IMG/VR virus record: IMGVR_UViG_3300046376_000205
Coordinates: 1-23,204 of that record
Direction: 5' to 3' (one strand)
Source: a virus
DNA: 23,204 nt
Shown: piece by piece, positions 2,699 through 15,247 of the stretch
Numbering within the stretch: the first letter of the stretch is position 1
How the letters are laid out: every line of letters begins with the position of its first letter
Program-made: the position numbers and the translations under genes
Notes under the pieces: generated by a model
What the model saw: only the letters and a program-made list of their open reading frames with translations
Databases searched by the model: none
What the model was told of the DNA's origin: nothing

Positions 2699-4202
2699 TG
2701 GCAACGGCAAAGGCCTCGCCTGGGACGGTCTGGGGGAAGATGTTCGCAATTTCATGTCACAGAATCGGCAGCACGGACCAGGGGAGGAGGAGGGTTTACC
2801 TCCCCCCGATCCGCGCTCGCAGAGCGATTTCCGTGACGTGTGGGACGCCGTAGCGACGTCTCCCGCTACCGCACGCATCATCGAATACATCAACGGCAGG
2901 CCGTGCGACCCGATCCCGACGCTGACGGAGATCGTCGCGGCGTTCTACCGAGCGGGCCAGACCAAGGCCATCTGGCCGGAACAGATCTCCACCGTCATCG
3001 CCATCTGCGGCGGGCAGATGTCGCGCCACATCAATCTGCGCAACGATGTCATCGCAGAGTGGGGCAAGCTGCATTACGAGACCACGTTCGCCGCGCAGAT
3101 GCAGCAGGAGGCGCGCAACGAGACCGGCGTGCCGTATGCGCAATCGGTCGGCGCCTTCATCCGGTCGCAGAAGCCACCGGAATACCTCGTCGAGCCGCTC
3201 ATCCAGCGAGCCAGCCTCTACACCCTGACCGCCCTGACCAGCCACGGCAAGACCGCTGTCCTGCTGTACATCGCGCTGTGCATCGCGAGCGGTCGGCCGG
3301 TTGCCGGCAAGCACACCGTGAAGGGGCGCGTCGTGTGGTTCGCCGGTGAGAACCCCTCGGACTTCGCGCAGAAGATCTACACCGCCTGCGAGCACTGGGG
3401 CATCGACCCTGACGAGCTGGACATGGTCGTGCTGGCCGGCGCGTTCGACCTGGCCAGCATGCCGCAGGAGGCGGTGAAGATGGCCGCGGCTGGCGGCGAG
3501 ACGGCCCTGGTGGTGATCGACACGTCTGCCGCGTATCGCTTCGATGATGACGAGGACAGCAACGCCAACGCCATCACCTGGGCCAGAATGCTGCGGCAAC
3601 ACTTCCCGGTGATGCCCGGACGACCGGCGGTGATCATCGCCACGCACCCGACCAAGCACGCGGACTGCGACAATCTGCTGCCGCGCGGCGGGGGCGCCTT
3701 CCTCAACGAAGTGGACGGGAATCTCACCCTGTGGGCCGACGAGGAACAGAACACGACCACGCTGCACTGGTGTGGCAAACTGCGCGGCATGTCGTTCTGT
3801 CCGCTCCAGTTTGCCCTACAGCCCTGCCCGCACCCGACTTGGACGTTCAAGAACGGCGATCCGGTGCTCATCAAGCTGGCCGTTCCGGCCGGCGATGGGA
3901 CCAAGCCGAGGCCGACAGGCGGGAAGGGCGGCAGGCCAGACGGCGGCAAGGCGTTCATCGCCCGCAAGATCCTCGCCGATCTGCTGGTGACCGAGGGGCA
4001 GTATGGCTACGCCCCAGCAAACCTGCCCGCCGTGTCCGAATCGCGCTGGCGTGAGGAGTTCTACAGTCGAGCCTGCGTCGAGGACGCTAAAACCGATACG
4101 AAACTCAAAAGTTTCCAGCGCACAGTCGACCGATTACTGACCGCAGAAACCATCGCGAAACGCAACGAATGGGTCTGGCTGATACATCCGGAGGTTGAGT
4201 AA
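2685..4202 (+). CDS. RepA/AAA_25-type replicative helicase
   Basis: A 505-residue protein starting MTKGNGNGKGLAWDGLGEDV. The ATG at 2685 has a GGGGAGGG sequence upstream, and the in-frame extension back to 2523 is rejected because it overlaps the preceding gene. Residues 1-170 form an N-terminal domain. A RecA-like fold follows, with Walker A LTSHGKTAV near residues 184-191 and Walker B LVVIDTSA with Asp 279, then IATHPTKHAD and GAFLNEVDGNLTLW as in hexameric RepA/AAA_25 helicases. A Gly/Lys-rich linker (TKPRPTGGKGGRPDGGK) joins a C-terminal winged-helix-like segment. It probably unwinds phage DNA during replication. The stop is followed at once by the GGACAAAACC repeat cluster. Confidence 0.85.
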   Translation: MTKGNGNGKGLAWDGLGEDVRNFMSQNRQHGPGEEEGLPPPDPRSQSDFRDVWDAVATSPATARIIEYINGRPCDPIPTLTEIVAAFYRAGQTKAIWPEQISTVIAICGGQMSRHINLRNDVIAEWGKLHYETTFAAQMQQEARNETGVPYAQSVGAFIRSQKPPEYLVEPLIQRASLYTLTALTSHGKTAVLLYIALCIASGRPVAGKHTVKGRVVWFAGENPSDFAQKIYTACEHWGIDPDELDMVVLAGAFDLASMPQEAVKMAAAGGETALVVIDTSAAYRFDDDEDSNANAITWARMLRQHFPVMPGRPAVIIATHPTKHADCDNLLPRGGGAFLNEVDGNLTLWADEEQNTTTLHWCGKLRGMSFCPLQFALQPCPHPTWTFKNGDPVLIKLAVPAGDGTKPRPTGGKGGRPDGGKAFIARKILADLLVTEGQYGYAPANLPAVSESRWREEFYSRACVEDAKTDTKLKSFQRTVDRLLTAETIAKRNEWVWLIHPEVE

Positions 4203-4206
4203 TGGG

Positions 4207-4443
4207 CCGGACAAAACCCCCGGACAAAACCCCGGACAAAACCCTGCCGGACAAAACTCCCGGCATGATCCGATCAGGACGGACAAAACCCTTTAGGGGT
4301 TTTGTCCGGCCCGGATGCCCAACCGCCGGACATCCGGAAAGCCGCAGCCAGCCTGGGGTTTTGGCGGCTGGGTTCAGCGGGAAAGGGGGCCGGACAAAAC
4401 CCCCGGACAAAACCAGTTATGTCCGGCTTTGGGTTTTGTCCGG
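4207..4443. repeat. Iteron-like cluster of CCGGACAAAACC repeats, candidate replication origin
   Basis: Seven direct copies of CCGGACAAAACCC or a close variant start at 4207, 4220, 4232, 4247, 4280, 4390 and 4403. Two inverted copies lie at 4297-4309 and 4431-4443. Copy 5 (4280-4291) and the first inverted copy form a perfect 12-bp stem with a TTTAG loop. The first copies are spaced 13, 12 and 15 bases apart, not multiples of three, so they do not encode a peptide repeat. Direct repeats with hairpins directly after a helicase gene fit an origin, but an RNA role or a terminator function is possible. Confidence 0.6.
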
Positions 4444-4470
4444 ATCAACACCAATAGGTTGTGGAGTGCC

Positions 4471-4632
4471 ATGAACGATCTGCCAGACTGGATGGACGAG
4501 GCTGGTGTCGTCCTGTCGCTCCGCGTAATGACCGAGGCCGAGGCAAGGCAGTGGGGGATCCCGCTCGACGAACGGCACAACTACGTCTGCCTCGAGCAGC
4601 TCAAAGGGCTGGACGACGAGGCTCCGCCATGA
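4471..4632 (+). CDS. Small hypothetical acidic protein
   Basis: A 53-residue protein, MNDLPDWMDEAGVVLSLRVM, followed by TEAEARQWGIPLDERHNYVC. It starts at ATG 4471, 27 bases after the repeat cluster. It is acidic, with one short helix and a beta-like end. A frame opening further upstream is not used because it would run through the repeats. No known domain; its position suggests an early or middle gene. Confidence 0.5.
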   Translation: MNDLPDWMDEAGVVLSLRVMTEAEARQWGIPLDERHNYVCLEQLKGLDDEAPP

Positions 4633-7837: not shown

Positions 7838-8584
7838 TCAGGCGGCGGCGATCTCGTCGAGGAAGCGACGCTCGCCACCCTTGGCGGGCATCATCATCGA
7901 CTGCCCCAGGCGACGCTCGGTCGAGGCGATGCGCGCCAGCAGGTCGGGGCGCAGCCTGGCGGCGGTCTTGATGTCGGCCTTGGACGACATGATGCAGAAG
8001 CAGCAGCTCAGGCGCGACATGCCGGCGGCGTAGGCCCAGTGAGCCACCTGGCCAGCCATCTCGATGGCGGCGAACACCTGGGTGGTCGTCCAGTGGTGGA
8101 TCGGCAGCCAGGTGTAGATCTCGCGGCCCGCCTTGCTGTTCTTGGCGTCAAACTTGAACACCTTAGCCTTCGCGCGGCTGCTGCTCTCTTCCGCGCGCAG
8201 TCCGACGCAGTCCACGAACAGCTTCTGGCCGGTTGCTGCACTGATCGCGCGGATGGTCCGCTCGATCGGGGTGCGCTTCAGGTCGCTGGTGCATTGCCGG
8301 TTGGTCGGGCTGGGGAACATTCCGCGCCGCTCGACCATCTGGAAGAACGTCGAGGCCGCGGTGCAGTAGTGGACCGGCAGCCCACCGACCGTCGCCTCGA
8401 TATGCTCGCGGATGCCGTCCCAGTCGACCTCGGGCAGCTCGGCATGCACCACGACGAGCTGCGCTGCCGGAATGATCTGGCGCAGGAAAATCGTCTGTGC
8501 CTGGCTGTCCTTGCCGCCGCTGTGGTTGATCACGAAAACCGCGCCACGAGCGATCAGGGTCTGAATTTCGGCCGGAATGCTCAC
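7838..8584 (-). CDS. PAPS-reductase/DndC-like PP-loop protein
   Basis: A 248-residue protein from GTG 8584, preceded by GAGGG at good spacing; the frame extends five codons more but without that site. A PP-loop ATPase motif HSGGKDS lies at residues 21-27. Further family marks are RQCTSDLKRTP (Cys98), GLRAEESSSR from 128, the WLPIHHWTTTQVF stretch, and CCFCI (Cys194, 195, 197). Cysteines at those places can hold an iron-sulfur cluster in DndC and assimilatory relatives. The family activates substrates by adenylation for sulfur or related transfer. Phage members have been linked to DNA or tRNA modification and counter-defence, but the role here is unknown. It is transcribed leftward from module B. 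Confidence 0.8.
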   Translation of the reverse strand: MSIPAEIQTLIARGAVFVINHSGGKDSQAQTIFLRQIIPAAQLVVVHAELPEVDWDGIREHIEATVGGLPVHYCTAASTFFQMVERRGMFPSPTNRQCTSDLKRTPIERTIRAISAATGQKLFVDCVGLRAEESSSRAKAKVFKFDAKNSKAGREIYTWLPIHHWTTTQVFAAIEMAGQVAHWAYAAGMSRLSCCFCIMSSKADIKTAARLRPDLLARIASTERRLGQSMMMPAKGGERRFLDEIAAA

Positions 8585-8589
8585 CTGGG

Positions 8590-8663
8590 AAGCCCTCACA
8601 CCGGCTCGGAATGATTCCCAACGCCGGACCCCCTATATGTCCCCATAATGGGGACCTGTCAAT
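8590..8663. promoter_or_regulatory. Divergent promoter/operator module B, duplicate of module A
   Basis: Contains GGAATGATTCC (8608-8618) and GTCCCCATAATGGGGAC (8639-8655), centres 34 bases apart as in module A. On the minus strand a perfect TTGACA (8662-8657), a 17-base spacer filled by the dyad and a CATATA -10 (8639-8634) make a good promoter for the PAPS-reductase-like gene. The conserved run continues as CCTGTCAAT on the right and TCACACxGGCT on the left. Confidence 0.72.
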
Positions 8664-9058: not shown

Positions 9059-10352
9059 CGTTGTCCTGCCGTTTTGCCCACGGAAGTGGCAGAGACCCCT
9101 CCTCGAGGACCAGGCGCCCAGGATCGTCGCCGTGGTGCATCGCCGCGCGGGCAAATCGACCGTTTTGTTGTGGAAAGGGCTGAAAAAGGCGCTAATCGAG
9201 CCAAAACCGCTCCCGAGAGTGCTGCATATCCTGCCATTTGGCGTCCAGTGGCAGCGCACGGGCCTGTGGGACGCCCTAGCGCGCGCCGCGCAGGCCATAC
9301 CAGGTGCCGAGGTCAGACGCTCAGAGCTGGCCGTGAAGCTGCCCAACGGGGGTGTTTTCCAGGCCGGTGGAGCGGACAATCCGGACAGCTGGCGCGGTGG
9401 ATACGCAGACATGGTCGTCATCGATGAATACGACGACACGCCACGAAGCCTCGTCCCGCTGGTCATCGAGCCGATGCTCGCAGACCGCAATGGCATCCTT
9501 GTCCGCTCCGGCACGCCGAAGGGAAGGGGCCTCCTGCAAGACGCTTTCGATCGCGCAAAGACTGCGCGTGGATACAGCACGTATCTACTGGACTACACCA
9601 TGACGCATGCATTGTCGGACGAGGCGATCGAGCGATTGCGCGAAGAGATGTCGGAGGAGGAGTTTGCCCAGGAACTGGAATGCAGTTTCGACTCGCCTAA
9701 CTCGGGGAGCTATTACGGCAAGTGGATGGATGCTGCGCAACGAGACGGCCGCATCTGTCGTGTGCTGTATGATCCTGCATTGCCGGTTTTTACCAGCTGG
9801 GATCTGGGAATAAACGACTCGGGCGCGATCTGGTGGTTCCAGATCTCACCGCGCGGCGAATGGCGCTGGCTCAAATATTACGAGCACGTCGGTGTCGGTT
9901 TAGACCACTACGCGAAGCTGGTGATCGAGCAGCAGTATGTCTACCGGCGACACCTGCTGCCGCACGACGTCGAGGTTAGGGAACTGTCGCAGCAAGGTCG
10001 CAGCCGAAGACAGTATCTCCTCGGCCTCGGCCTGCGACCGATCCAGGTGGTGAAGGCATCGAACCCGGCAGATCGCGTGCAGGCGATGCGCAGCGTCCTG
10101 CCGAAGAGCTATTTCGACGCGTCTGGTTGTGATGTCGGCATCAAGATGCTGCGTGCCTACAGGCGCCAGTGGAATGAGCGCATGGGCGTGTGGGCATCCG
10201 AGCCGGTGCATGACGCGGCGAGCCATGCCGCAGACGCGGCTGGGATCGGCGTACAGGGCGCCAACGACCCGCAGGCCGAGAAGCCCAGGCGGAAGGCCCA
10301 ACAGCCTCGCCTGGTTCACGAGCGCGGCGCTGCAGAGTGGATGGGCGTGTAG
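9036..10352 (+). CDS. terL: Terminase large subunit (ATPase/nuclease)
   Basis: Packaging motor of the phage. With a start at 9036 it has 438 residues: Q-motif-like KWQRPLL, Walker A HRRAGKST (35-42), Walker B MVVIDEYDD (Asp130, Glu131) and coupling motif RSGTPKGRG. The nuclease domain has TSWDLG (Asp256), an Asp at LLPHDVEV (311) and EPVHDAASHAADAAGIG near the C-terminus. The frame is open from 9021 but the first GTG is at 9132, two codons before Walker A. That start would remove the conserved LTRDVVLPFCPRKWQRPLLE segment. Candidates are ATC 9036 (GGAG six bases before), CTG 9048, or a +1 frameshift from terS. The start given here is a best guess. Confidence 0.9.
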   Translation: MLPPLTRDVVLPFCPRKWQRPLLEDQAPRIVAVVHRRAGKSTVLLWKGLKKALIEPKPLPRVLHILPFGVQWQRTGLWDALARAAQAIPGAEVRRSELAVKLPNGGVFQAGGADNPDSWRGGYADMVVIDEYDDTPRSLVPLVIEPMLADRNGILVRSGTPKGRGLLQDAFDRAKTARGYSTYLLDYTMTHALSDEAIERLREEMSEEEFAQELECSFDSPNSGSYYGKWMDAAQRDGRICRVLYDPALPVFTSWDLGINDSGAIWWFQISPRGEWRWLKYYEHVGVGLDHYAKLVIEQQYVYRRHLLPHDVEVRELSQQGRSRRQYLLGLGLRPIQVVKASNPADRVQAMRSVLPKSYFDASGCDVGIKMLRAYRRQWNERMGVWASEPVHDAASHAADAAGIGVQGANDPQAEKPRRKAQQPRLVHERGAAEWMGV

Positions 10353-10365
10353 CGCTCGCCGACCT

Positions 10366-11373
10366 CGGTGCTCTCCGGTGAGACGGCTCGCTCATCATTC
10401 TCGGTGCTCTCGTGACGGTCGGCTCGCTCTCCGCCAACGGTACTCTCCGCACATTCGGCTCGCTCCGGACTCTCGGTGCTCTCTGGGGCGACGGCTCGCT
10501 CTTCGTCTACGGTGCTCTCATCGGTGGTGGCTCGCTCTCGTAGGACGGTGCTCTCCCGAGACACGGCTCGCTCACGTGATACGGTGCTCTTCAGCCGCTT
10601 CGGCTCGCTCGCGATTATCGGTGCTCTCACCCTCTCCGGCTCGCTCATCCGATTCGGTGCGCTCCTCGCTCTCGGCTCGCCCGTTGACTTCGGTGCTCTC
10701 ACCACTGTCGGCTCGCTCGTTTCTCCCGGTGCTCTCTTTCCAAGCGGCTCGCTCGGCGCCCTCGGCACTCTCGTGATCGTCGGCTCGCTCACGCGGATCG
10801 GTGCTCTCGCGGGGCTCGGCTCGCTCTCCCATATCGGTGCGCTGCGCTCAGACCATTCGGCTCGCTCAGCGGCAACGGCGCTCTCCCGTCAATCGGCTCG
10901 CTCGCATCTCTCGGTACTCTCTGGCATGCCGGCTCGCTCGGCGATATCGGTGCTCTCATCGCTGACGGCTCGCTCTGCTACAACGGCACTCTCCAAGCCG
11001 CCGGCTCGCTCAACTATTTCGGTGCTCTCATCGGAGCCGGCTCGCTCATGCACCCCGGCACTCTCCCGAGGATCGGCTCGCTCCCTTGATCCGGTGCTCT
11101 CCCACAGCTCGGCCTCGCTCGCCGAAATCGGTGCTCTCCCATAACACGGCTCGCTCGGCCAGTTCGGTGCTCTCTATGTGCTTCGGCTCGCTCAACCCTA
11201 CCGGTACTCTCTCCACGTTCGGCTCGCTCTAGTGGTTCGGCGCTCTCCGGTCGTGCGGCTCGCTCCGGACTGTCGGTGCTCTCATGGGTATCGGCTCGCT
11301 CGCACAAGACGGTGCTCTCATGCTGCTCGGCTCGCTCGCGTGGGACGGTGCTCTCCCGACCTGCGGCTCGCTT
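10366..11373. repeat. Array block 1: 56 half-units of 18 nt with two alternating 10-mers
   Basis: CGGTGCTCTC and CGGCTCGCTC alternate strictly, each followed by 8 variable bases, from 13 bases after the terL stop to the zinc-ribbon gene. Of 55 steps 51 are exactly 18 nt; the others are 19 (10582, 11110, 11165) and 23 (10835). The first 10-mer varies almost only by transitions, as CGGYRCTCTC; the second is nearly invariant. Among the 8-mers I see no exact duplicate; the base just before CGG is T or A in most. On the minus strand the motifs read GAGAGCACCG and GAGCGAGCCG. No reading frame is continuous across the block. Confidence 0.93.
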
Positions 11374-11507
11374 TCGTCGTTGCCCTCGAAGCGATGGCAG
11401 CGCCCGCAATAGCGCTGGCGCAGATCGTTCAGGTTATAGCTGACTGCGCCGCAGCGCGGACAGACGTAAGCCGGCGGCTCAACGCTCTCGGTGCTCTCCC
11501 TAGTCAC
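11229..11507 (-). CDS. Zinc-ribbon protein embedded in the repeat array
   Basis: A 92-residue frame from GTG 11507. Residues 10-44 are a conserved-looking zinc ribbon: EPPAYVCPRCGAVSYNLNDL then RQRYCGRCHRFEGNDE, with Cys16, 19, 34 and 37 as CxxC-x14-CxxC. This core resembles small zinc-ribbon proteins seen in phages and bacteria. The first nine residues (TRESTES) come from one array half-unit. Residues 45-92 are array translated as SEPxxxRAPxxx until a stop at 11229. The ancestral protein probably ended near FEGNDE, and repeats have replaced its stop. It may be co-transcribed with the IS110-like gene 600 bases upstream. Confidence 0.6.
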   Translation of the reverse strand: MTRESTESVEPPAYVCPRCGAVSYNLNDLRQRYCGRCHRFEGNDESEPQVGRAPSHASEPSSMRAPSCASEPIPMRAPTVRSEPHDRRAPNH

Positions 11508-12097
11508 GGCTCGCTCAATCTCATCGGTGCTCTCATCGATATCGGCTCACTCGACACCATCGGTGCTCTCTCCATGTTCGGCTCGCTCCATCGCTACGGT
11601 GCTCTCCACTGGTGCGGCTCGCTCTCCCACACCGGACGGCTCGCTCCGCTCATCCGGTGCTCTCCGCTGGTACGGCTCGCTCGGCCGATACGGTGCTCTC
11701 TCCATAGGCGGCTCGCTCCGCTTTATCGGTGCTCTCTCGATTCACGGCTCGCTCCAGAGATACGGCGCTCTCCCCGACGACGGCTCGCTCAGCTCTTTAC
11801 GGTGCTCTCCCGTCTACCGGCTCGCTCCGCAATTACGGTACTCTCGCATACCACGGCTCGCTCAGCCGTGTCGGCGCTCTCCTTGGACTCGGCTCGCTCC
11901 TCTCGCTCGGTGCTCTCTAGGAACTCGGCTCGCTCTTCAGAGTCGGCGCTCTCGTGGGGAACGGCTCGCTCAGTCATGTCGGTGCTCTCCCGCCTCACGG
12001 CTCGCTCTCCCAGTACGGTGCTCTCACTCGTGATGGCTCGCTCCATCTCCTCGGTGCTCTCACAACCACCGGCTCGCTCCGCCATGTCGGTGCTCTC
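11489..12097. repeat. Array block 2: 34 half-units of the same alternating repeat
   Basis: It continues the pattern of block 1 on the other side of the zinc-ribbon core and ends 11 bases before the stop of the IS110-like gene; a decayed CGGCTATGCC at 12106 is the last trace. Of 33 steps, 31 are 18 nt, one is 19 (11781) and one is 22 (11615), where two CGGCTCGCTC motifs are adjacent and a CGGTGCTCTC is lost. Variants are again CGGTACTCTC and CGGCGCTCTC for the first motif and rare single changes for the second (CGGCTCACTC at 11543). Confidence 0.93.
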
Positions 12098-12108
12098 AGC
12101 CTGCCCGG

Positions 12109-12963
12109 CTATGCCATCGGCCAGTTCGGCGGCGCGATGAAGTGGGTATGCCCGGCCAGTTCCGGGTGCGCCAGGTGCGCCGCGTCGGACAATATGTAAG
12201 GTTTATCCGGCGGGCGCTTGTATTCCAGCTCGTGCATGACGTGGTGCAGGTGCGCCAGGAACAGCTTCACGGCGTAACGCTCGGCGCGCAGGTGGATGCG
12301 TGCGGGTGGCAGCTTGCCCGACTCGTAGTGCTTGCGCGCGTCCGTGTCGGCCCCGAACTTCTTGGCGGCGAGTGACGCCGCAGCCTGAGCAGCGAATGCG
12401 CCTGCTTCGTTCTTGGTGATCTCGTAGGCCTTTCTGGACACATAGACTTTGCCATAGACGTCATGTTCGTTGTTGTGAACTTTGACGAACGATTCGCCGA
12501 TCAGGAAGCACAGTCGCTTCAGGCTGCCGTTCCACGGGCGTTTCTTGCCCTTGTCCCATTTTACGGTCGGGTCGAGGCCGGCAAAACGCCAGATATGACC
12601 GACTGTCGGGGCCAGTTTGATGTCTATGTGGCACAGCAAGCCCGCCGCGATGACCGGCCCGATGCCGACGATCGATCGTGCCCACACGCCGGCCGGCTGC
12701 GCCCCGGAGTAGGCGTCCAGGGCGCGGCGGATCTGTAGCTCCAGCGTCTCGCGCTGCCCGGCGAGCCAGGTCATCACGTCATGCGGCTCGCCTGACTCGC
12801 TGAGCGTGCGCTCCTGGTGCCCGGCGCGGATTCTGTCGCGCTGCATCGCGTAGTAGGCGTCGACCAGAAACCTAGCTTCGTCAGTACTCAGTGTTCGCGC
12901 GGCGTTGCGCAGATCGCGTGTCAGTCGTGCGACCGGGTCGAGCAGCTGTGCCGTTTCGCTCAT
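12109..12963 (-). CDS. IS110/IS116-type transposase C-terminal-domain protein without RuvC domain
   Basis: A 284-residue protein starting MSETAQLLDPVARLTRDLRN. Residues 1-90 are helical. Residues 95-165 match the IS110/IS116/IS902 C-terminal domain: ARSIVGIGPVIAAGLLCHID, then GHIWRFAGLDPTVKW and KRPWNGSLKRLCFLIGESFV. The GIGPV helix-hairpin-helix and FAGLDP are plain. The N-terminal DEDD/RuvC-like catalytic domain of IS110 enzymes is absent, and where those have a Ser-Gly after AGLxP this protein has WDKGKK. It is therefore more likely a DNA-structure-binding protein than an active transposase. The rest is basic and helical (LHLRAERYAVKLFLAHLHHV). The start codon overlaps the possible portal start on the other strand. 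The repeat array lies directly downstream. Confidence 0.75.
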   Translation of the reverse strand: MSETAQLLDPVARLTRDLRNAARTLSTDEARFLVDAYYAMQRDRIRAGHQERTLSESGEPHDVMTWLAGQRETLELQIRRALDAYSGAQPAGVWARSIVGIGPVIAAGLLCHIDIKLAPTVGHIWRFAGLDPTVKWDKGKKRPWNGSLKRLCFLIGESFVKVHNNEHDVYGKVYVSRKAYEITKNEAGAFAAQAAASLAAKKFGADTDARKHYESGKLPPARIHLRAERYAVKLFLAHLHHVMHELEYKRPPDKPYILSDAAHLAHPELAGHTHFIAPPNWPMA

Positions 12964-13015
12964 GTCAGACCTCGAGAGTTTCCATGCGCCCTATTCCTAC
13001 CAGCGCCGCGCTCTG

Positions 13016-15247
13016 ATGGCACGCACCAGGATTCGCGCCGGCGACGCCGATATTGTCAGCGAGGCCAAAAACCGCTTCGAGCGCTGCGAGAAGTGGGAGG
13101 CCGACGCGCGCGAAAACGCCCTCGAGGATGCCAGGTTCGCCAACGGCGACAGCGTGAATATGTGGCAATGGTCGCAGATCGTGCGCAACGCGCGCGGCAA
13201 CCGGCCCATGTTAACGATGAATAAAGCCAGGCAGCACATTTTGCAGATCGTCAACGACGCGAGGCAGCACAAGGCGCAAGTCAAGATCACCCCCACCGGC
13301 GGGCGCGCCAGCTACGAGGCGGCGCAGGTATTTGCCGGCATCATCCGACGCATCGAATATCAATCCAAAGCCGTCGATGCATACAGCACGGCGATATACC
13401 ACCAGGTCGAAACCGGGATTGGATACGTCAGGGTGGTCACGGACTTCGCTGACGATGACAGCTTCGACCAGGAGATCTTCATCCGCAGGATCGCCGATCC
13501 GCGCACCGTGTATTTAGACCCGGATGCGAAAGAATATGACAAGGCGGATATGAAGTTTGCCTTCGTATTTAATGATCACGAGCGAGACAGCTGGGAGGCG
13601 AAGCACGGCAAAGACCTGAATGCAGGTCCCGTCGCGCTCGACAACACGGACGGGTGGAATGACAAGGACCACGTCCGGGAGGCGGAGTATTGGCGTCGCA
13701 ACGAACACAATGACACGCTGCACCTGCTGACGGACGGCAGCACGGTGCGCGAATCCGACCTCGAGGACGGCGAGCTGGAGCAGCTCAAGCCGCACATTGT
13801 CAAATCGCGCGATGTCGGCCAGCCGGAGGTGGAGTGGTTTAGAATCGCCGGTGACAGGATCGTCGAGCGCAAAGTATGGCTCGGTAAATATATCCCAATC
13901 GTTCCATTTATCGGTGAGGAAGTTGTCATCGAGAACCGCATGGACCGCAAGGGCCATACCAGGGCGCTAATCGATGCGCAGCGTATGTACAATTATTGGT
14001 CGAGTGCAGCGGTCGAACAGGTCGCGTTGCAGAACAAGTCACCATACGTCGCCACGGCGCAGTCGATCGAAGGCAGGGAACGCGACTGGGAGAATGCCAA
14101 CCTCGAGAATAAATCGGTCCTGATATACAATGGTATAGACGAGACCGGACAGAAGGTAGAGCGGCCGGAACGCGCGCAGCCGCCGCAAATGGCACAGGCA
14201 TATTTGGAAGGCATGAACATCGCCCGGCAGGATATGATGATGGTCAGCGGGCAATACGAAGCTGAAATGGGCCAGCCCGGCAACGAACGCAGCGGCGTGG
14301 CAATCCAACAGAGACAGCGTCAAGGTGATAACGCTACGTACCATTACATCGATAATCAATCGAAAGGAATACGCCAGGTTGGTCGTATCTGTCTCGATCT
14401 GATTCCTAAAGTTTATGACACGGCCAGGGTTATGAAAATCATGGCGGAGGACGGATCAGACTCCGACATCCACCTGGTGCCGAATGCGCCGGTTGCGCAC
14501 CAGCAGATTGCATCGACGCAGCAAGGCCCGATGCCGGTGACGCCGCAGCAGGCCGATGCGATCAACAGCGATCCTAATCAACCAGATGTCAAAACGATCT
14601 TTAATCCGAATGTGGGCCGTTATGACGTAATGGCCGATGTAGGTCCGAGCTACGGCACGCAGCGCCAGGAGGCGGCGAATGCCTTCTCACAAATCATGCA
14701 GCAGAATCCTGCAGCATTCCAGCTCGTCGGGGACTTCTGGGCGGCAAATTCGGATTTCCCTGGCGCGGACGAACTGGCGGAGCGTTTGAAGAAAGGCCTG
14801 CCGCCGCAGTATGCGGACGGACCATCCGCGCAGGTGCAGCAGCTGCAGCAGCAAGCGCAGCAGATGGCGCAGCAAGCGCACCAGCTGCTCGGGCAGGCGG
14901 ATTCGGAGATCGCTGCACTGAAGCAGCAGCTGGCTGCGCTGCAGCTCCAGGCGAAGGACAAGGCGGTAGAGAACACCACGCGCGACTACGATGCCGAAAC
15001 CAAGCGCTTGCAGACTGTCGCGCAAGCCGACCCGGCCGCCGCGCAGGTGATCATCCGCAGCATGTTGTCGCAGCTGCTCGGCATGCCGGCCTTGCCAATC
15101 ATGCACGAACATATCGCGGCCGACACGCAACACGCGCAGTCGCTCATGCCGCCCGACCCGGAAGCTGATGGCGGTGACGGTGCCGCGGCACCCGCGCCAG
15201 CGATGCCTCCGCCGAACCCCGCCGCGCCCGCGCCGGCGATGCAGTGA
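13016..15247 (+). CDS. P22-type portal protein
   Basis: A 743-residue protein (P22 gp1 is 725) starting MARTRIRAGDADIVSEAKNR. It forms the dodecameric DNA gate at the head vertex and binds terminase and head-completion proteins. P22-portal features include FERCEKWEADARENALEDAR, GNRPMLTMNKARQHILQIVN, IRRIADPRTVYLDPDAKEYD, and FIGEEVVIENRMDRKGHTRA followed by RMYNYWSSAAVEQVALQNKS. The C-terminal third has a Gln-rich coiled coil (VQQLQQQAQQMAQQAHQLL) and a Pro/Ala tail. An in-frame ATG at 12962 (MSDLESFH) would add 18 residues. Neither start has a clear ribosome-binding site; 13016 matches the usual N-terminus better and avoids overlap with the divergent gene. Confidence 0.92.
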   Translation: MARTRIRAGDADIVSEAKNRFERCEKWEADARENALEDARFANGDSVNMWQWSQIVRNARGNRPMLTMNKARQHILQIVNDARQHKAQVKITPTGGRASYEAAQVFAGIIRRIEYQSKAVDAYSTAIYHQVETGIGYVRVVTDFADDDSFDQEIFIRRIADPRTVYLDPDAKEYDKADMKFAFVFNDHERDSWEAKHGKDLNAGPVALDNTDGWNDKDHVREAEYWRRNEHNDTLHLLTDGSTVRESDLEDGELEQLKPHIVKSRDVGQPEVEWFRIAGDRIVERKVWLGKYIPIVPFIGEEVVIENRMDRKGHTRALIDAQRMYNYWSSAAVEQVALQNKSPYVATAQSIEGRERDWENANLENKSVLIYNGIDETGQKVERPERAQPPQMAQAYLEGMNIARQDMMMVSGQYEAEMGQPGNERSGVAIQQRQRQGDNATYHYIDNQSKGIRQVGRICLDLIPKVYDTARVMKIMAEDGSDSDIHLVPNAPVAHQQIASTQQGPMPVTPQQADAINSDPNQPDVKTIFNPNVGRYDVMADVGPSYGTQRQEAANAFSQIMQQNPAAFQLVGDFWAANSDFPGADELAERLKKGLPPQYADGPSAQVQQLQQQAQQMAQQAHQLLGQADSEIAALKQQLAALQLQAKDKAVENTTRDYDAETKRLQTVAQADPAAAQVIIRSMLSQLLGMPALPIMHEHIAADTQHAQSLMPPDPEADGGDGAAAPAPAMPPPNPAAPAPAMQ

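What the first reader, a model, noticed from the sequence alone, without database searches (positions are those of the whole stretch)
10366..12097. A 1.7-kb array of about 90 half-units: fixed 10-mer plus 8 variable bases, two 10-mers alternating
CGGTGCTCTC-N8-CGGCTCGCTC-N8 repeats with an 18-nt step. I parsed 56 half-units before and 34 after the zinc-ribbon core; 82 of 88 steps are exactly 18 nt. The 10-mers are nearly invariant while I found no repeated 8-mer. An ordinary minisatellite diverges evenly, so this split needs either strong selection on the 10-mers with free 8-mers, or a mechanism that writes new 8-mers between fixed blocks. Possible roles: a packaging or recombination site next to terL, a decoy or binding array for a dimeric or alternating protein, or a structural RNA. 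I know of no described element like it.
Basis: seen in the sequence. Interest (0 to 1): 0.92.

Follow-up and report, generated by a model that had tools for sequence, protein, structure and literature searches.

The report
TIGR guide-RNA array in a phage
The strange 1.7-kb repeat is a TIGR array, a bank of about 45 two-part guide RNAs next to its Tas protein gene, so the element belongs to a DNA-targeting system described in 2025, but it is unusually long, and its relatives offer a first candidate clue to what such phage guides aim at.

Summary
There are 90 half-units (56+34), 82 of 88 steps are exactly 18 nt, and no 8-mer repeats. The "no described element" reading is wrong. On the minus strand this is a dual-repeat TIGR array (loop GAGAGCACCG, edge GAGCGAGCCG, two 8-nt spacers, 36-nt unit). 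It starts on the stop codon of a 284-aa gene that scores 201.5 bits against NCBIfam TIGR_Tas (cut-off 100) and folds like solved TasH and TasR (Z 18-20). It has no nuclease domain, so it is a TasA. The array begins and ends with the truncated edge repeats that Faure et al. 2025 describe. Of 115 loci encoding relatives, 103 carry such arrays, almost always on the tas strand. About 45 units is long for the published family (usually 5-15) but not unique here. The 2.6-kb cassette fills the terL-portal junction, which is empty in close relatives. A zinc ribbon interrupts the array and is not a conserved component. New here: spacers are inherited as A-loop-B pairs (17 of 18 shared two-spacer blocks). 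In one isolate, a guide exactly matches the excisionase gene of a resident phage-derived element, a candidate natural target that rests on one case.

The parts
12109..12963 (-). tasA: 284-aa Nop-domain protein without a nuclease domain
   Evidence: NCBIfam NF052498 TIGR_Tas 1.6e-59, 201.5 bits vs cut-off 100; PDB profile hits TasR 9mty 1.3e-23 and TasH 21kl 1.3e-12; fold Z 18-20 to TasH/TasR
12106..12110 (-). 5'-truncated edge repeat AGCCG; overlaps the tas stop codon TAG by two bases
   Evidence: sequence; same arrangement in 72 of 110 distinct relative arrays that start with a loop repeat
11489..12105 (-). TIGR array block 1: 17 loop-centred units (loop GAGAGCACCG, edge GAGCGAGCCG, 8-nt spacers); one unit damaged near 11615-11646
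11476..11488 (-). last spacer of block 1 plus GAGCC, probable 3'-truncated edge repeat
   Evidence: sequence; the closely related L001 array ends the same way
11374..11480 (-). zinc-ribbon coding stretch (YVCPRCGAVSYNLNDLRQRYCGRCHRFEGND) between the two blocks; no start or stop codon of its own, open frame 11507..11229 runs into both arrays
10366..11373 (-). TIGR array block 2: 28 loop-centred units
10353..10365 (-). last spacer and 3'-truncated edge repeat GAGCG, ending at the base next to the terL stop codon (10350-10352)
   Evidence: sequence
9132..10352 (+). terL, left border of the cassette (context)
   Evidence: PF03237 2.6e-5, phrog_2 2.6e-25
12962..15247 (+). P22-like portal gene, right border; its likely ATG overlaps the tas start codon divergently (context)
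   Evidence: PF16510 1.3e-161; empty junction in L196 and L210

Best explanation
It is a TIGR-TasA system carried as a cassette by a P22-like podovirus. Inferred from the published family: the minus strand is transcribed through tasA and the array, the long RNA is cut in the middle of each edge repeat into about 45 guides of 36 nt (AGCCG - spacer A, 8 nt - GAGAGCACCG - spacer B, 8 nt - GAGCG), and each guide is held by a TasA dimer, spacer A pairing with one strand of a target and spacer B with the other (target strand 5'-A-rc(B)-3', 16 bp). Shown here: protein identity, array anatomy, association with tas, edge/loop covariation and pairwise inheritance of A and B. Because TasA has no nuclease, the most likely action is to bind and bend target DNA and block its transcription or replication. 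The most likely targets are competing phages or phage-derived elements in the same host (about 55% likely, against regulation of own or host genes). Target and outcome are inferred and not shown for this phage; the confidence below is for the identity of the system.
For: Protein: NCBIfam TIGR_Tas 201.5 bits, cut-off 100; PDB profile and fold matches to TasR and TasH above IS621 and Nop5; no nuclease domain found. Array: alternating 10-nt repeats and 8-nt spacers, truncated edges at both ends as published, 4022 half-repeats on the tas strand against 6 on the other in 115 sequences. Covariation: last base of edge and loop agree in 87 of 89 loci, as the published box C rule predicts. A and B inherited as a unit: 17 loop-centred against 1 edge-centred shared two-spacer block (binomial p 7e-5). 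Target lead: in Acidobacteriaceae KBS 96, unit 2 of a prophage TIGR-TasA array matches exactly, gap 0, codons 9-14 of an excisionase-like gene in a resident phage-derived element (about 0.04-0.06 exact matches expected for six units), and unit 5 matches 14 of 16 in the same element.
Against: No RNA or binding data for this phage. No enrichment of A-rc(B) sites in 2.7 Mb of tas-, terL- and portal-bearing contigs or 0.4 Mb of capsid relatives of the KBS 96 element. In Halomonas sp. NO4, of four units tested two had only chance-like matches and two had none. Five of six KBS 96 units have no exact site. The consensus scan found no promoter or plausible terminator.
Confidence: 0.93

Rival explanations
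1. The repeat encodes a hexapeptide-repeat protein (ERAxxxESTxxx or SEPxxxRAPxxx on the minus strand), with the zinc ribbon as its core.
For: 18 nt is six codons and long open frames exist (158, 131, 98 and 92 aa).
Against: The frame is broken by six irregular steps; stop codons are not significantly depleted compared with shuffled spacers in any minus frame; 10-mers are conserved at all codon positions; relatives keep the DNA anatomy and not the zinc ribbon.
Confidence: 0.02
2. A packaging, recombination or decoy site for terL or another alternating DNA-binding protein.
For: It lies between terL and portal.
Against: Closest terL relatives have terL and portal adjacent with nothing between (L196, L210); in relatives the array follows tas into other genomic contexts, for example L001.
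Confidence: 0.02
3. An IS110-like transposon with a repetitive guide RNA region, that is a mobile element and not a TIGR system.
For: Weak Pfam Transposase_20 hit and PHROGs label 'transposase'.
Against: No DEDD catalytic domain recognised in the 284 aa; TIGR_Tas scores 201.5 bits against 21.3 (cut-off 140) for IS110; fold Z 18-20 to Tas against 13.7 to IS621; IS110 has one bridge RNA and not a 36-nt array.
Confidence: 0.02
4. A real TIGR-TasA system whose guides act on the phage's own or host genes as a regulator, or assist integration, and not against competitors.
For: TasA lacks a nuclease; Faure et al. list regulation and help to integrases as options.
Against: No exact or one-mismatch self target in this contig; spacers differ almost completely between relatives with 94% identical Tas, which fits changing rather than fixed targets.
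Confidence: 0.3

Closest known systems
TIGR-TasA (dual-repeat TIGR-Tas systems; Faure et al. 2025, PMC12045711)
   Same: Solo Nop-domain protein; [quoted passage not shown] 36-nt unit; truncated edges at array ends; edge and loop share their terminal motifs; found in tailed phages.
   Different: Spacers are 8 nt (the paper gives 9 as usual, 8+8 for SpTIGR). About 45 units against the usual 5-15. Repeat motifs GAG...CCG and not UG...CCA of TasR. Array split by a zinc-ribbon stretch. No rho-independent terminator found.
TasR and TasH (nuclease-bearing Tas proteins, PDB 9mty, 21kl, 9w04)
   Same: Nop and coiled-coil fold (Z 18-20).
   Different: No RuvC or HNH domain here.
IS110/IS621 bridge-RNA transposases (PDB 8wt6)
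   Same: Shared Nop-like RNA-binding part (Z 13.7).
   Different: No DEDD domain recognised, no single bridge RNA, an array instead.
Box C/D snoRNP Nop5 (PDB 1nt2)
   Same: Distant Nop fold (Z 7.6, in the range where chance helical matches occur).
   Different: Guides RNA methylation; no array of this kind.
CRISPR arrays
   Same: Fixed repeats, unique spacers, RNA guide bank.
   Different: Two alternating short repeats, split spacers; no Cas protein among the ORFs examined here.

Membership tests
TIGR-Tas (dual-repeat type) | Nop-domain Tas protein | tested here: met
   NF052498 201.5 bits vs cut-off 100; PDB sequence hits; fold search
TIGR-Tas (dual-repeat type) | two distinct alternating 8-12-nt repeats with about 8-12-nt spacers | tested here: met
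   10-nt repeats, 8-nt spacers, 82 of 88 steps 18 nt
TIGR-Tas (dual-repeat type) | array starts with 5'-truncated and ends with 3'-truncated edge repeat | tested here: met
   AGCCG at 12106-12110, GAGCG at 10353-10357; same in 72 of 110 starts and 57 of 101 ends of relatives
TIGR-Tas (dual-repeat type) | rho-independent terminator after the array | tested here: inconclusive
   none found by a simple consensus scan
TIGR-Tas (dual-repeat type) | edge and loop repeats share and covary in box C/D-like end motifs | tested here: met
   GAG....CCG in both; last base agrees in 87 of 89 loci; loci are not independent
TIGR-Tas (dual-repeat type) | array transcribed and processed to 36-nt tigRNAs bound by Tas | not testable with these tools
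   needs RNA sequencing
TIGR-Tas (dual-repeat type) | tandem-spacer targeting of both DNA strands | not testable with these tools
   needs binding assay; one candidate site in a relative's host
TasA subtype | no HNH or RuvC domain | tested here: met
   284 aa, none found by Pfam; fold match covers model residues 24-283
IS110 transposase | IS110 family score above the curated cut-off | tested here: not met
   NF033542 21.3 bits, cut-off 140

The most novel reading that the evidence does not exclude
Phage-borne TIGR-TasA arrays are guide banks with which phages silence competing phage-derived elements in the same host. The KBS 96 prophage carries a guide exactly matching the start of the excisionase gene of a roughly 10-kb integrated element (integrase, repressor, excisionase, O-like replication gene, head genes, no terminase or portal found) whose head protein is 68% identical to the prophage's own. 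Whole A-loop-B units are gained and lost as cassettes. This would be the first natural target of a TIGR system known to me and a phage weapon against satellites or defective prophages that use related capsids.
Probability: 0.3. Interest if true: 0.8.

Novelty: new member of a known kind. Interest (0 to 1): 0.5.

Why it matters
TIGR-Tas systems are a recent class of RNA-guided DNA-binding systems related to box C/D snoRNPs and IS110, and their natural targets and the way arrays change are stated open questions. This locus is a long TasA array in a phage, and it leads to about 100 related arrays in which those questions can be asked with data. Two results bear on them directly: spacer pairs are inherited as one unit, and one guide in an isolate genome exactly matches an early gene of a resident phage-derived element. 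The KBS 96 pair can be tested at the bench.

Tried and rejected
Targets in the window, in all tas-bearing contigs and in terL/portal relatives: no excess of A-rc(B) over rc(A)-B or re-paired spacers. Capsid relatives of the KBS 96 element: none; integrase relatives: no loci. Halomonas sp. NO4: of four units tested, the only one-mismatch site lies in what looks like an ordinary chromosomal gene, and read-backwards controls gave similar numbers. Rfam: no match. PADLOC: tas not listed. Phage GenBank records: only one distant hit, Microcystis phage Mvi-JY20, 27.6%. Protein-coding reading of the array: not supported. Zinc ribbon as a system component: no counterpart within the fetched flanks of the 30 tas relatives L001-L030 (the later loci were not scanned); similar ribbons are parts of free small genes in unrelated phages, without arrays where checked. 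A weak A versus rc(B) similarity (2.2 sd) was not pursued.

Full report
Observation. I find 90 ten-base cores (56+34) from 10366 to 12097; 82 of the 88 steps within the two blocks are 18 nt; all 82 eight-base gaps are unique and look like independent random 8-mers. Spacer GC is 58% for A and 50% for B, against 64% for the contig.

What it is. Read on the minus strand, the repeats are GAGAGCACCG (loop) and GAGCGAGCCG (edge). The array starts on the stop codon of ORF 12963..12109. That protein scores 201.5 bits against NCBIfam NF052498 TIGR_Tas (cut-off 100). A profile of 16 relatives finds TasR (9mty, 1.3e-23) and TasH (21kl, 1.3e-12) among solved structures. The AlphaFold model (mean pLDDT 85) matches TasH and TasR best (Foldseek E about 1e-6; VIA Z 18-20), then IS621 (13.7). 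No nuclease domain was found, so by the published naming it is TasA.

Anatomy against the description in Faure et al. 2025 (PMC12045711). [quoted passage not shown] Here the array begins AGCCG-N8-loop and ends loop-N8-GAGCG, the last base touching the terL stop codon. Cutting each edge in the middle gives exactly 36 nt. Edge and loop share GAG....CCG. Across 89 loci the last base (G or A) of edge and loop agree in 87; these loci are related, so the figure is descriptive.

Relatives. Two IMG/VR scans and one genome scan gave 115 distinct sequences with a tas relative or the window itself, some of them overlapping extracts of the same contigs. 103 carry arrays by my pattern; 4022 half-repeats lie on the tas strand and 6 on the other. 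Of 110 distinct arrays that start with a loop, 72 are preceded by a truncated edge in the right place (chance about 1%); of 101 that end with a loop, 57 are followed by one. Some relatives have 5-6 arrays scattered between genes (L023, L024). About 45 units is long by the published norm of 5-15, but L019 is similar in size.

The cassette. In the terL relatives L196 and L210 the terL and portal genes abut. In the window 2.6 kb of tas plus array, on the opposite strand, fill that junction exactly. In L001 (Tas 94% identical, region about 81% at DNA level) the cassette sits next to other genes.

Spacer turnover. L001 and the window share two regular spacers out of 22; identical arrays occur in near-identical viruses from different samples (L012-L015). 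Between less close relatives, shared runs bounded by real differences on both sides are mostly single spacers (56, many of them expected by chance) or pairs. Of 18 two-spacer blocks, 17 are centred on the loop repeat and 1 on the edge repeat (p 7e-5 for an even split, not corrected for relatedness). So spacers A and B are inherited together as the guide RNA predicts.

Targets. From the reported 3' overhangs I derived the rule that a target strand reads 5'-A-(0-2 nt)-rc(B)-3'; this derivation is mine. No enrichment was seen in the sequences fetched. Two isolates carry a prophage tas. In Acidobacteriaceae KBS 96 (six units), one unit has an exact gap-0 site in the 6.7-Mb genome; 0.04-0.06 exact sites were expected for all six units together. 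The site covers nt 26-41 of an 86-aa excisionase-like gene (HTH_17, phrog_66) beside an O-like replication gene, a divergent repressor and an integrase. The surrounding 9-10 kb has head protein and head protease genes and a tail- or virion-like gene, but no terminase or portal was recognised. Its head protein is 68% identical to that of the tas-bearing prophage. A second unit matches 14 of 16 in the same element, one of three such matches in the genome against three for a control, so this second hit is weak alone. Halomonas sp. NO4 gave nothing convincing. I treat the KBS 96 site as a candidate, not as proof.

Zinc ribbon. The stretch at about 11374-11480 resembles small zinc-ribbon proteins of other phages. 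It lacks its own start and stop and is absent within the fetched flanks of the first 30 tas relatives, L001-L030; the later loci were not scanned. It is most likely a captured or decaying gene between two arrays, not a part of the system.

Limits. No RNA or protein data exist for this virus; the contig is an incomplete metagenome record with unknown host. The paper library holds no preprints, so prior reports of natural targets cannot be excluded.

Noticed in passing
window 7838-8599 (-): PAPS-reductase family protein with PADLOC matches to BrxP (9.6e-20), SspD (1.6e-16) and DndC; may relate to DNA phosphorothioation or to defence evasion.
   Followed up: no
window 4202-4474: 13-nt CCGGACAAAACCC repeats inside a small open frame.
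   Followed up: no
L196, L197, L198, L199, L210 terL-portal junctions: The terL-portal junction is a cargo site: empty in L196/L210, about 0.6 kb in L197 and larger inserts in L198/L199.
   Followed up: partly
L023, L024, L079, L082: Five to six separate TIGR arrays scattered between genes of one virus.
   Followed up: no
L047, L048, L069, L090, L108, L110: tas relatives with arrays of other periods (34, 35, 37, 38 nt).
   Followed up: no
G001:C1 about 6323000-6332100 (L221, L222): Compact integrated element in KBS 96 with integrase, repressor, excisionase, replication and head genes, possibly a capsid-bearing satellite or defective prophage.
   Followed up: partly
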